Of a stretch of DNA of 64,000 bases, positions 24,842 to 60,371 are shown one piece after another. A program made the translations under genes and the position numbers. The stretch is taken from NCBI RefSeq assembly GCF_001645685.2, contig NZ_CP017080.1:3773051-3837050 (forward strand), read 5' to 3'. The stretch comes from Peribacillus muralis. Its GTDB lineage: Bacteria; Bacillota; Bacilli; Bacillales; DSM-1321. The notes below the pieces were generated by a model. The model was given only the letters and a program-made list of their open reading frames with translations. It ran no database searches and was not told the DNA's origin. The number at the start of each line of letters is the position of its first letter. Within the stretch, counting starts at the first letter, position 1.

Positions 24842-25080
24842 AATAAAAAAACGCACTCATCCCTAAGCAAGGGACGAGTGCGTTTACTCGTGGTTCCACC
24901 CAATTTCCCATAAGCAAGAAAACACTCATGGCTCTGGAGCTTGTAACGCAGCTTAGACGATATCAATTACTCTCGTTCACTGATATAGCTCAAAGGCGGT
25001 AAATCCTTTTCCTAAGCCAGGAAGTTTGCAGCTGCCCTTCCCTCTCTTGAGACCGTAAAAATGATTATTGTCCTTTTCAT
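24842..25080 (-). promoter_or_regulatory. T-box riboswitch, gene-proximal copy
   Basis: Reading on the minus strand: stem I with AGAGAG and AGCTGC elements, specifier region GGATTTACCGCCTTTGAGC holding a Thr codon ACC, the T-box core GGGTGGAACCACG (24889-24901), and a terminator AAACGCACTCGTCCCT / AGGGATGAGTGCGTTT plus T run (24843-24884). The variable base of UGGN is A, which pairs with a U discriminator as expected for tRNA-Thr. Confidence 0.93.
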
Positions 25081-25097
25081 CGCAATATTTTTATAAA

Positions 25098-25335
25098 CAA
25101 AAAACGCACCCATCCCTAATATAAGGGACGAGTGCGTTTACCCGTGATTCCACCCAATTTCCCATAAGTACGATCACCTATGGCTCTGGAGCTGTAACGT
25201 AGCTTAGTCGATATCGGTTACTATCCTTCACCGATAAAAGCTCAAAGGCGGTAAATCCTTTTCCTAAGCCAGGAAGTTCGCAGCTGCCCTTCCCTCTCTT
25301 AAGACCGTAAAAAAGATTGTTGTCCTCATCATGGC
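25098..25335 (-). promoter_or_regulatory. T-box riboswitch, promoter-proximal copy
   Basis: Same order of elements as the proximal copy and the same ACC specifier context. The T-box core reads GGGTGGAATCACG (about 25143-25155), with T where the other copy has C. Own terminator AAACGCACTCGTCCCT / AGGGATGGGTGCGTTT plus T run (25099-25139). Both copies must be read through before thrS is reached. Confidence 0.92.
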
Positions 25336-25357
25336 TTCTAATTTTATATTGTTATAC

Positions 25358-58202: not shown

Positions 58203-58281
58203 AAGTCACTGCTTTTTTGCATGTATGGTGGCTTCCATCATAAGATGAACAGATTGATTCGATTCCTAAGGCGACTGGCTT

Positions 58282-58842
58282 ATGAAGGCAATGGTATGCA
58301 CCAAATACGGTTCACCCGATGTACTGGAGCTCAAGGAGGTGGCAAAACCCACTCCGAAGGACAATGAAATCCTCGTAAAGATCCATGGGACATAAGAGTC
58401 CGCCGTTTCCATAGTCCTTTCTTGCTTTGGCTTCCGATGCGGATCTTCCTCGGACTTACAAGGCCGCGCAAAGCCATCCTGGGCATGGAGCTGGCCGGGG
58501 AAGTGGTTGAAACGGGAGCGAAGGTGAAAAAATTCAAAAACGGGTACGCGATTTTTACGATGACAGGCATGAATTTTGGCGCTTATGCCGAATACACATG
58601 CTTGCCTGAGGATAGGGCCGTGGCCATGAAACCAGCCAATCTTTCCTATCAGGAGGCGGCCGCCCTCTCATTTGGAGGAACGACAGCGCTGCATTTTTTT
58701 CGAAAAGGAAATATCGAGGCTGGGCAAAAGGTGATCATCTACGGGGCTTCCGGAGCTGTAGGGACTTCGGCGGTACAGTTTGCGAAATGCTTTGGGACAG
58801 AGGTTACCGGCGTATGCAGTGCCGCTAATTTTGAATTGGTTA
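58282..58842 (+). pseudogene. Zinc-independent alcohol dehydrogenase/quinone reductase, decayed
   Basis: Starts [20 protein letters not shown] and runs to a TAA after KIHGT (58393); the matching continuation ([22 protein letters not shown]) is in the next frame from about 58392, with some seven residues missing, so a small deletion caused a frameshift. The reading frame then follows the family through [15 protein letters not shown] and stops matching at FELV near 58840. The C-terminal catalytic half is absent. Confidence 0.8.
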
Positions 58843-59061
58843 CTGAATTCCATTATAATGAACGACTGCCAAGCACTCTTTTACCTTCACCTCAAGGCCC
58901 AATTCTTCAAAGGCTTCCCTTTTTGCAGCGGTTTCAGGTGTTTCACCTTTTTCGATGCCTCCGCCCGGGAAGACATAGTATTCAGTCCCTTCTCTATTTC
59001 TTCTGATCAAGGCCACTTTATCTTTTTCCATGAAGATCATGGCCCCTCTATTCCTCACCAT
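58840..59061 (-). pseudogene. NUDIX hydrolase, 3'-truncated
   Basis: 73 aa remain. Complete Nudix box [21 protein letters not shown] (described by ends: GGIE...EEL), but the protein stops after HYNGIQ where the family usually continues for about 60 residues. The truncation point falls exactly at the break of the facing dehydrogenase pseudogene, so one deletion likely joined both. Start ATG 59061; no strong ribosome binding site. Confidence 0.8.
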
Positions 59062-59122
59062 TATAAATACCCACTTTCTCTCGAAAATTTAGCTGGTTTT
59101 CGAAAAAATACGACACTAGATA

Positions 59123-59156
59123 CGAACATTATATAATAATTATTATTGAATGTTCA
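59123..59156. promoter_or_regulatory. Candidate PurR operator (PurBox pair) and -10
   Basis: CGAACATT (59123-59130) and inverted AATGTTCA (59149-59156), 18 bp apart, resemble the paired Bacillus PurBoxes (AWWWCCGAACWWT, 16-17 bp apart). The second is weak (TGAAC for CGAAC). TATAAT (59132-59137) lies between them. Confidence 0.5.
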
Positions 59157-59220
59157 CTTTTTTGTTGATTTCCTATCCATCCTTTGTTATATTAGCCAAG
59201 TAATAATCGTACATATCATT

Positions 59221-59292
59221 ACTCGTATAAGCTTGGAAATATGGTCCGAGCGTTTCTACCTGGTTCCCATCCGAAAGAACTGGACTACGAGT
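59221..59292 (+). ncRNA. Purine riboswitch (guanine type)
   Basis: P1 ACTCGTA / TACGAGT; P2 GCTTGGA / TCCGAGC with loop AATATGG; J2/3 GTTTCTAC; P3 CTGGTTC / GAACTGG with loop containing CCGAAA; J3/1 ACTAC. This is the purine-aptamer consensus (compare GATATGG, TTTCTACC, CCGTAAA and GACTAYG). The C at the position equivalent to C74 (59285) predicts guanine or hypoxanthine binding, not adenine. P3's loop is a little longer than usual. Confidence 0.9.
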
Positions 59293-59414
59293 TAAAGTAT
59301 CCTCCTGCTCGTCTAATTTGAGCAGGTGATGATTTAGCATTTGCTTTATTATCGATGCTTTGACTTTCACAGCTCCAGGAGGCAGGATGATTCTGCCATT
59401 CTGGGGCTTTTTTT
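59289..59414 (+). terminator. Riboswitch expression platform
   Basis: Terminator AGCTCCAG-ga-GGCAG-gatgatt-CTGCC-att-CTGGGGCT plus T7 (59371-59415). An antiterminator can form between GAGTTAAAGTA (59289-59299, overlapping the P1 3' strand) and TGCTTTGACTT (59356-59366). Ligand binding should thus close P1 and allow termination. Confidence 0.75.
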
Positions 59415-59458
59415 CAGGCCACACCTGCTCTTGCATCAAATATAAAGGAGAGATTACT

Positions 59459-60325
59459 ATGAAAAAGTACTCGATATTAGGAATCATGGCCTTACTTTTC
59501 GTCATGATGGTTACAGCTTGCAGCTCGCCCTCCAACAATGAAGTGACAGAAAAAAAGACGCAAAGGCCCATCTTGGTTCAAGGTCCGATGCCGATCGAAG
59601 CTGAACATTTCGCCGAAAGATTGGAAAATGTGAAAGAAGAAAAATCAGGGGATTTTGTTTTTTACATCGGGACGTTAGCCGATTACCCGGTCATCGTGGC
59701 GAAAACAGGTAAAGGGATGGAAAATACCGCTGCCGCTACAGCCGTGGCGATTGAAAGATATAACCCCATCGCCATCATCAATCAAGGGACATCTGGCGGT
59801 CATGATCCAAGCTTAAACGTTTTTGATATCGTTTTAGGAAAAAGGACGGTAAACCTGGGTTCATTAAAAACCGCAGATAAAGCCGAAAACGAAGGCATTG
59901 ATCCAACTATATGGAAGCCGATGGACCTAATGGCTTCTGAAGGAAGTGCCGGGGAGGACCCGAATGCTGAAAAGCCACGCTTCTATGAAGGAGATCAGGC
60001 TTTGCTTGCAGCCGCACATGCCGTTAAGGATACGTACACAAAAGGAAAGGTTGTCGATGGCACGATCGGTTCCGCGGATGTCTGGAATAATGAAGTCGAT
60101 CGGATTAAATGGTTCCATACGAAATATGATACTTCTGTAGAAGAGATGGAAGGCGCCGCCGCTGCCCAAATCGCCAAAGCATACGAAGTTCCCTTCTTGG
60201 GAATACGGGTACTATCGAACAATAAAGTGAATGGCGGTAAATATAACCCGAATACAGCTTCCGCCAATCAAGAATACGTGTATGAAGTGGTCAAACAATA
60301 TATCTCTACGGCTACAAGCAAATAA
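59459..60325 (+). CDS. Lipoprotein of the nucleoside phosphorylase/nucleosidase superfamily
   Basis: 288 aa. Signal peptide MKKYSILGIMALLFVMM with lipobox VTAC (Cys near residue 21). The mature part fits the PNP/MTAN fold: PVIVAKTGKGMENTAAATAV, INQGTSGG, and the substrate loop EEMEGAAAAQIAKAYEVPFLGIRVLSNN. Acts outside the membrane, probably to release a purine base from nucleosides. ATG 59459 with AAAGGAG eight bases upstream. Preceded by a guanine riboswitch and a possible PurR operator, which fits a purine salvage role. Confidence 0.85.
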   Translation: MKKYSILGIMALLFVMMVTACSSPSNNEVTEKKTQRPILVQGPMPIEAEHFAERLENVKEEKSGDFVFYIGTLADYPVIVAKTGKGMENTAAATAVAIERYNPIAIINQGTSGGHDPSLNVFDIVLGKRTVNLGSLKTADKAENEGIDPTIWKPMDLMASEGSAGEDPNAEKPRFYEGDQALLAAAHAVKDTYTKGKVVDGTIGSADVWNNEVDRIKWFHTKYDTSVEEMEGAAAAQIAKAYEVPFLGIRVLSNNKVNGGKYNPNTASANQEYVYEVVKQYISTATSK

Positions 60326-60337
60326 GCTCGACCTTGT

Positions 60338-60371
60338 AAAAGAGGCGCAGACTACTATCTGCGCCTTTTTT
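60338..60371. terminator. Intrinsic terminator
   Basis: AGGCGCAGA-ctacta-TCTGCGCCT then T6; between convergent genes. Confidence 0.9.

What the first reader, a model, noticed from the sequence alone, without database searches (positions are those of the whole stretch)
59123..60325. Guanine riboswitch and possible PurR site on a secreted nucleosidase-like lipoprotein
All aptamer parts match the purine class, with C at the ligand-defining position, and a full terminator follows. A PurBox-like pair surrounds the -10. The gene makes a membrane-anchored PNP/MTAN-type protein, a different type from the usual xpt/pbuX/pur targets. Together this suggests an extracellular purine-scavenging enzyme under double purine control, an uncommon arrangement.
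Basis: partly seen in the sequence, partly recalled or inferred. Interest (0 to 1): 0.8.

Follow-up and report, generated by a model that had tools for sequence, protein, structure and literature searches.

The report
Guanine-riboswitch-controlled secreted purine nucleosidase lipoprotein
A Bacillus-like bacterium controls a surface-anchored, nucleoside-cutting enzyme with the same two purine switches that control its purine synthesis and import genes, which suggests that the enzyme frees guanine and hypoxanthine outside the cell and may be wrongly labelled in databases.

Summary
Window 59203-59307 is a guanine-type purine riboswitch (RF00167, 74.7 bits), followed by an intrinsic terminator and a 288-aa PNP-fold lipoprotein gene (59459-60325). 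It is one of six purine riboswitches in the genome; the others precede xpt-pbuX, pbuG, guaA, purE and a nucleoside-transporter gene. The leader is conserved: 101 of 103 ortholog loci (two partly overlapping sets) carry the riboswitch. PurBox pairs spaced as at this genome's purE and xpt occur in 80 of 87 distinct promoter regions, 2 expected from shuffles; PurR is encoded. Relatives are annotated as MTA/SAH nucleosidases, but the base-selecting Asp is Asn in 90 of 90 distinct orthologs, as in 20 of 20 futalosine hydrolases and this genome's PunA. I predict a surface 6-oxopurine (guanosine/inosine) nucleosidase switched off by its own product. Substrate and activity are inferred; a periplasmic relative with the same Asn is published as an MTA/SAH nucleosidase. 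I found no paper describing this in the library searched.

The parts
59118..59130 (+). PurBox 1 (AGATACGAACATT)
   Evidence: 11/13 to the PurBox consensus (recalled); same spacing and place in relatives
59149..59161 (+). PurBox 2 (inverted, AATGTTCACTTTT)
   Evidence: 11/13; spacing of 18 as in own purE and xpt; 80 of 87 distinct promoter regions have a pair
59165..59193 (+). Promoter: -35 TTGATT 59165-59170, 17 nt, -10 TATATT 59188-59193
   Evidence: 9/12 with TG before the -10; best match begins 3 or 4 nt after box 2 in 60 of 80 promoter regions
59203..59307 (+). Guanine riboswitch aptamer (RF00167); C at 59285 sets specificity
   Evidence: 74.7 bits, E 2e-11; the equivalent base is C in 101 of 101 loci with the aptamer
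59371..59414 (+). Intrinsic terminator; its 5' arm can pair with aptamer strands (antiterminator)
   Evidence: -25.6 kcal/mol plus T run; 5' arm pairing with upstream 0.24 with P1 formed, 0.70 without (row L007)
59444..59450 (+). Ribosome-binding site AAAGGAG
   Evidence: read from the sequence
59459..60325 (+). Secreted PNP-fold nucleosidase lipoprotein, 288 aa (P0001)
   Evidence: PNP_UDP_1 136 bits; nearest solved 5b7g, E 3e-60; E47, E231, N254 invariant in 90 of 90 distinct orthologs
59459..59521 (+). Signal peptide and lipobox VTA-C21
   Evidence: translation; lipobox-like in 66 of 90 distinct orthologs by a loose pattern
60218..60220 (+). Codon of Asn254, the residue that replaces the base-selecting Asp of MTA/SAH nucleosidases
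   Evidence: Asn in 90 of 90 distinct orthologs; Asp in own MtnN and DeoD, Asn in own PunA
60338..60371 (+). Terminator after the gene: probably a single-gene transcript
   Evidence: -20.6 kcal/mol hairpin with T run

Best explanation
This is a single-gene member of the cell's purine-starvation regulon. PurR bound to the PurBox pair just upstream of the -35 blocks initiation when purines suffice. If transcription starts, the guanine-class aptamer reads free guanine (probably also hypoxanthine). Bound aptamer lets the terminator form and transcription stops (OFF). Unbound, the terminator's 5' arm pairs with the P3 3' strand, J3/1 and P1 3' strand of the aptamer, and the gene is read (ON). The product is a lipoprotein on the outer face of the membrane with an MTA/SAH-nucleosidase-like fold. 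It hydrolyses purine nucleosides outside the cell, most likely the 6-oxopurine nucleosides guanosine and inosine. The freed guanine and hypoxanthine enter through permeases of the same regulon (pbuG, pbuX), and guanine then shuts the gene off. Shown by computation: aptamer class, terminator, conserved PurBox geometry, PurR gene, fold, signal peptide, Asn at the base-selecting site. Inferred: OFF logic, PurR binding, surface location, hydrolase activity, substrate.
For: Aptamer, in 101 of 103 ortholog loci, with the guanine C in 101 of 101. Regulon mates xpt-pbuX, pbuG, guaA, purE and a Na+-type nucleoside transporter. PurBox pair at spacing 18-19 in 80 of 87 distinct promoter regions, 2.0 expected from shuffles, at a fixed place; PurR 388 bits against a cut-off of 258.7. 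Antiterminator: in 60 of 83 leaders the 5' arm pairs more with upstream sequence (by over 0.15) when P1 is blocked; its duplex with P3 3'/J3-1/P1 3' is matched by at most 10 of 200 shuffles in 68 of 84. Asn254 in 90 of 90 distinct orthologs, Asp in own MtnN and DeoD, Asn in own PunA, Asn in 20 of 20 futalosine hydrolase loci, Asp in 8 of 8 MtnN loci. Published mutants support the Asn = 6-oxopurine rule in PNPs (PMC5074518, passages). Solved MTAN Asp-to-Asn mutants are listed with MTA or SAH bound (1z5o, 4p54, 4oy3; titles only).
Against: The best-matching solved relative (A. hydrophila periplasmic enzyme, about 40% identity), which also has Asn there, was published as an MTA/SAH nucleosidase with functional analysis (title and a citing review only); if it really cleaves MTA, Asn does not exclude that. 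TIGR01704 (MTA/SAH nucleosidase) just passes its cut-off: 75.6 against 73.8. In the 25-protein database alignment E231 and R250 are only nearly invariant. Antiterminator: in 11 of 83 leaders the computed pairing goes the other way, and a covariation test failed: the 5' arm holds the exact reverse complement of its own locus's P3 3'/J3-1 hexamer in only 2 of 84 leaders and does not follow its variants. 24 of 90 distinct orthologs have no lipobox Cys. The Asn rule is established for phosphorylases; for hydrolases I rest on sequence patterns.
Confidence: 0.62

Rival explanations
1. It is what databases say: an MTA/SAH nucleosidase, secreted, that scavenges adenine (and methylthioribose) from extracellular MTA or SAH; the purine switches simply tie it to purine need.
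For: Such a name in the named rows I saw among the 120 listed of 2223 homologs; TIGR01704 just above its cut-off; nearest structures are MTANs and the closest, periplasmic one was published under that name.
Against: Base-selecting Asp replaced by Asn in 90 of 90 distinct orthologs; the stretch from about residue 129 to 180 is about 20 residues longer than in own MtnN and aligns poorly with it; the genome already has a normal MtnN; control by guanine rather than adenine or SAM fits adenine release less well.
Confidence: 0.24
2. It removes inosine or guanosine near the cell for signalling reasons (for example to avoid nucleoside-triggered spore germination) rather than for nutrition.
For: Surface location and predicted substrate; inosine is a germinant in some Bacillus species (recalled).
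Against: PurR and guanine control put it in the purine-supply regulon with biosynthesis and import genes.
Confidence: 0.06
3. A surface nucleoside-binding protein with little catalysis, feeding a transporter.
For: Lipoprotein form, usual for solute-binding proteins (recalled); Asn at the catalytic Asp position; E231 and R250 only nearly invariant in the 25-protein alignment.
Against: E47, M230, E231 and R250, equivalents of MTAN active-site residues, are invariant in the 90 distinct orthologs from loci; no neighbour family of any kind in more than 11 of the 84 loci examined.
Confidence: 0.06
4. The riboswitch and boxes are chance or decayed remnants without function.
For: Little: the nearest upstream reading frames look like gene fragments.
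Against: Conservation in 101 of 103 loci with 74 distinct aptamers; PurBox geometry.
Confidence: 0.02

Closest known systems
Guanine (guanine-I) riboswitch, RF00167, as on xpt-pbuX, pbuG and purE
   Same: Aptamer architecture, conserved core and C at the ligand-pairing position; terminator downstream whose 5' side overlaps the complement of P3 3'/J3-1/P1 3', as seen by eye also at own pbuG
   Different: L3 loop 10 nt in the window instead of 7; controls a secreted enzyme rather than a cytoplasmic purine enzyme or a permease
2'-dG-III variant riboswitch on purine nucleoside hydrolase genes (PMC9295807, section 8 read)
   Same: A guanine-riboswitch relative next to a purine-nucleoside-cleaving enzyme gene in Bacillus
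   Different: That variant deviates in all three joining regions and is predicted ON; the window keeps the guanine core and is predicted OFF. Among relatives a few deviate at single core bases (for example L024/L051, L022/L046, L053, L092)
B. thuringiensis nupR leader (PMC9430930, passages read)
   Same: PurR plus guanine riboswitch with guanine-triggered termination, shown experimentally
   Different: Controls a GntR-type regulator, not an enzyme
Aeromonas hydrophila periplasmic MTA/SAH nucleosidase (5b7g/5b7p/5b7q, 5b7n)
   Same: About 40% identical, exported, Asn at the base site
   Different: Gram-negative; called an MTA/SAH nucleosidase by its paper (title only seen); its regulation was not examined here
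Futalosine hydrolase (TIGR03664)
   Same: PNP-fold hydrolase with a similar MEG...SN pattern; releases hypoxanthine (recalled)
   Different: The window's protein is below the family cut-off, 69.7 against 124.7 bits, and is exported

Membership tests
Guanine riboswitch (RF00167, guanine-I) | Score above the curated gathering cut-off | tested here: met
   74.7 against 37 bits
Guanine riboswitch (RF00167, guanine-I) | C (not U) at the ligand-pairing position of J3/1 | tested here: met
   C at 59285; 101 of 101 loci with the aptamer
Guanine riboswitch (RF00167, guanine-I) | Binds guanine and controls expression | not testable with these tools
   needs in-line probing and a reporter
2'-dG-III variant | Deviation from the guanine consensus in all three joining regions | tested here: not met
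   In the window J1/2, J2/3 (GUUUCUACC) and J3/1 match the RF00167 consensus in the printed alignment
PurR regulon (B. subtilis type) | Two inverted PurBoxes with a 16-17 bp spacer (14-bp boxes), just upstream of the -35 | tested here: met
   13-mers spaced 18-19, which I equate with 16-17 for 14-mers; same as own purE and xpt
PurR regulon (B. subtilis type) | PurR protein binds the site | not testable with these tools
   purR gene present, 388 bits
MTA/SAH nucleosidase (MtnN, TIGR01704) | Equivalog cut-off | tested here: met
   75.6 against 73.8, barely, in two stretches (best one residues 40-128); fails PRK05584, 96.5 against 169
MTA/SAH nucleosidase (MtnN, TIGR01704) | Base-protonating Asp (E. 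coli Asp197; role recalled) | tested here: not met
   Asn254 in 90 of 90 distinct orthologs; Asp in own MtnN and in 8 of 8 MtnN loci, own included
Futalosine hydrolase (TIGR03664) | Family cut-off | tested here: not met
   69.7 against 124.7 bits
Purine nucleoside phosphorylase (DeoD or PunA) | Family cut-off | tested here: not met
   DeoD models far below cut-off, 38.6 against 230 and 21.2 against 232.25; no PunA-type model among the 17 families listed up to E 1
Lipoprotein | Lipobox cysteine after a hydrophobic stretch | tested here: met
   VTA-C21; 66 of 90 distinct orthologs lipobox-like by a loose pattern

The most novel reading that the evidence does not exclude
A subfamily of exported PNP-fold hydrolases, annotated in every named row I saw as MTA/SAH-type nucleosidases, are in fact extracellular 6-oxopurine (guanosine/inosine) nucleosidases. 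In part of the Bacillales they were recruited into the purine regulon by gaining a PurBox pair and a guanine riboswitch, giving a surface enzyme that is shut off by its own product. The terminator's 5' arm in many relatives (not in the window) is complementary also to the ligand-binding strand J2/3, so the antiterminator would take apart the binding pocket itself.
Probability: 0.45. Interest if true: 0.6.

Novelty: new member of a known kind. Interest (0 to 1): 0.45.

Why it matters
Guanine riboswitches and PurR are textbook controls of cytoplasmic purine synthesis, salvage and import. Finding them together on a secreted nucleosidase in many Bacillales genera extends the regulon to the cell surface. 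It also gives a regulatory clue to the substrate of a protein family whose database name (MTA/SAH nucleosidase) conflicts with its active site. One simple assay with guanosine, inosine, adenosine, MTA and SAH would settle the substrate. If confirmed, many entries would need renaming, and quorum-sensing (AI-2) inferences drawn from them would lose their basis.

Tried and rejected
Alternative antiterminator CCUCCUG (59301) with CAGGAGG (59376): exactly complementary in the window (coordinates; complementarity read by eye), but I did not test it for conservation. Covariation of the antiterminator by exact hexamers gave nothing: 2 of 84 leaders. The J2/3 complement found in 53 of 88 distinct leaders (3 of 88 in reversed strings) has no exact match in the window's own leader or in the five other purine leaders of this genome, so I do not claim it for the window. 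A first PurBox count, anchored on TTTCTAC (54 of 60 distinct regions), lost 32 of 103 loci for lack of the anchor and was replaced, which uses the Rfam coordinates. Leader counts differ (83, 84, 87, 88) because duplicates and leaders without a terminator or a needed motif were dropped script by script. Gene neighbourhood: no neighbour family in more than 11 of the 84 loci examined, so there was no operon clue. The structural model (mean pLDDT 76.8; under 50 at 149-156, 158-164 and 209-212, among others) is too weak around the active-site loop for docking and was used only for the fold. Literature: of ten searches five aimed at a purine riboswitch with such a gene; judged from listings and the passages read, none describes it. 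Subscription papers, including the A. hydrophila paper, could not be read. In the VIA table (50 entries shown) I saw no trimeric PNP; that says nothing either way.

Full report
WHAT IS THERE. Rfam RF00167 matches window 59203-59307 (+) at 74.7 bits, twice the gathering score. The core is that of guanine-class aptamers, with C at 59285. A hairpin with a 7-T run ends at 59414. The gene runs from ATG 59459 to 60325: 288 aa, a hydrophobic N-terminus ending in VTA-C, then one PNP_UDP_1 domain. A terminator follows the gene, and neighbours are not conserved (no family in more than 11 of the 84 loci examined), so it is most likely a single-gene transcript. The protein is 89% identical to one from a Peribacillus sp., and several of its closest named loci are titled Peribacillus, so the window probably comes from that genus.

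REGULON. The genome has six purine riboswitches. From the downstream genes, five precede a phosphoribosyltransferase with a permease (xpt-pbuX), a permease (pbuG), GMP synthase (guaA), AIR carboxylase (purE) and a Na+-type nucleoside transporter. The sixth is this lipoprotein. Gene names are mine, from the domains and recalled B. subtilis counterparts.

CONSERVATION OF THE RIBOSWITCH. Of 61 genomes (own included), 23 encode a clear ortholog (70% identity or more); in the rest only weaker matches were found, mostly of the MtnN kind. All 23 loci have RF00167. Of 80 named loci (the best 80 of 155), 78 have it; L056 (a second copy in Peribacillus cavernae) and L099 (Niallia endozanthoxylica) do not. 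The two sets overlap in part (some are the same contigs): the 101 positive loci give 74 distinct aptamers. Fourteen further stretches were fetched. The 9 at about 39-50% identity do not have it. Three of those nine (L144, L151, L152) have less than 600 nt of upstream sequence. Eight of the nine show the S-N motif described below; L149 did not match the pattern. The riboswitch thus marks a clade within a wider family. In an order sample 44 of 249 genomes (16 of 105 genera) have a hit at E 1e-25 or better, and in a phylum sample 9 of 299, own genome included in both.

PURR. The PurBox consensus I used is recalled. PMC8789054 (passages read) states that 14-bp boxes with a CGAA core are separated by 16 or 17 bp and lie, at the pur operon, just upstream of the -35. 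In this genome the best pairs at purE and xpt are 13-mers spaced 18, starting 75 and 96 nt before the aptamer match; the window's pair has the same spacing and starts 85 nt before it. pbuG, guaA and the transporter locus gave nothing above 19 of 26. Over 101 loci there are 87 distinct promoter regions, of which 80 score 20 of 26 or better at spacing 18-19; dinucleotide shuffles predict 2.0. Tested singly, spacing 18 gives 70 and the other spacings from 12 to 25 give 0-21. The seven low regions (L026/L103, L075, L093, L100, L112, L117, L118) are listed. The regions are related by descent, so the shuffle figure is not a strict probability; however, the spacers differ widely while the boxes stay. 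The best -35/-10 match starts 3 or 4 nt after box 2 in 60 of the 80. PurR itself is encoded (388 bits).

SWITCH LOGIC. 98 of 101 leaders have a hairpin below -12 kcal/mol followed by a T run. In partition-function runs on transcripts ending before the 3' arm, the terminator's 5' arm pairs with upstream sequence with mean probability 0.40 when P1 is forced and 0.72 when P1's 5' strand is blocked; 60 of 83 leaders rise by more than 0.15 and 11 fall by as much (window 0.24 to 0.70). The duplex of the 5' arm with P3 3'/J3-1/P1 3' is matched by at most 10 of 200 shuffles in 68 of 84 leaders (window: 9 of 200). This is the usual competition of an OFF switch. Against it: an exact-hexamer covariation test in the same call failed (2 of 84 leaders, and no tracking of variants); many arms carry an extra base there, so the test was severe, but it gives no support. 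P1-forced runs do not hold P2 and P3 in place, so they understate the bound state.

ENZYME. NCBIfam scores are ambiguous: just over the TIGR01704 cut-off and below the cut-offs of the others listed. Aligned with this genome's own MtnN, DeoD and PunA, the ortholog set (90 distinct proteins from 103 loci) keeps E47, M230, E231, R250 and S253 without exception, but has Asn254 where MtnN and DeoD have Asp; PunA has Asn. In a separate 25-protein alignment from the database search N254 is invariant, but E231 and R250 only nearly so. A pattern scan of the 121 proteins held (the query and its 120 listed homologs) gave Asn in 119 and no pattern match in 2. Eight MtnN loci all have Asp. Twenty futalosine hydrolase loci (the 20 returned; 26 of 101 genomes were over the cut-off) all have Asn. 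PMC5074518 (passages read) reports that Asn at this place goes with 6-oxopurine specificity in trimeric PNPs and that changing it to Asp admits adenosine. PDB titles show MTAN Asp-to-Asn mutants crystallised with MTA or SAH (1z5o, 4p54, 4oy3). On this I base a 6-oxopurine preference. Against it: the closest solved relative, the A. hydrophila periplasmic enzyme, also has Asn and is published as an MTA/SAH nucleosidase (5b7 series, titles, cited in PMC6302742, passages). I could not read that paper. A search for 5'-nucleotidase C-terminal domains finds four matches in the genome, two of them in frames of the same length close together, so a source of extracellular nucleosides is plausible but untested.

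LOCATION. 66 of 90 distinct orthologs have a lipobox-like motif by a loose pattern; the other 24 keep a hydrophobic N-terminus without the motif. Export is thus the likely common feature, lipid anchoring the majority state. No signal-peptide program was run.

LITERATURE. I found no paper on this gene under a purine riboswitch in the held library (searches; listings). PMC3766115 and PMC2258182 hold no occurrence of 'nucleosidase' in the main text. PMC11477304 (passages) lists a C. difficile MTA/SAH nucleosidase gene in a table, but names guaA, xpt and two transport genes as the purine-riboswitch targets. PMC9295807 (section 8 and passages) describes the 2'-dG-III variant on purine nucleoside hydrolase genes; the window's aptamer is not of that type. 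PMC9430930 (passages) shows PurR plus guanine-riboswitch control for nupR.

VERDICT. The interest lies in the target and its likely misnaming.

Noticed in passing
window 24867-25341 (-): Two T-box leaders in tandem, 107.5 and 96.6 bits, 31 nt apart.
   Followed up: no
window 58240-58830 and 58840-59061: A reading frame resembling a zinc-type quinone oxidoreductase that looks broken (a longer intact frame lies upstream in relatives such as L043; no family search was run on it), and a 73-aa NUDIX ORF matching only positions 5-71 of 134 of the profile.
   Followed up: no
G022:C1:3744156-3744251 and G008:C16:44219-44287: Short remnants (84% and 78% identical) of a second copy of the nucleosidase close upstream of the intact gene in two relatives; Peribacillus cavernae has a second copy without riboswitch (L056).
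   Followed up: partly
window 59267-59276: The L3 loop of the aptamer is 10 nt instead of 7, with enlarged loops in most relatives (by eye).
   Followed up: no
L041-L120, leaders: Complement of the ligand-binding strand J2/3 in 53 of 88 distinct leaders downstream of the aptamer (3 of 88 reversed), absent in the window and in the genome's other purine leaders.
   Followed up: partly
L060 (titled Paenibacillus sp. FJAT-29882) and L103 (Peribacillus loiseleuriae): Their N-terminal sequences agree over the 34 residues printed, and the L060 contig has the length of G009:C12, a genome listed as same genus as the window: the Paenibacillus title may be a misnaming.
   Followed up: no
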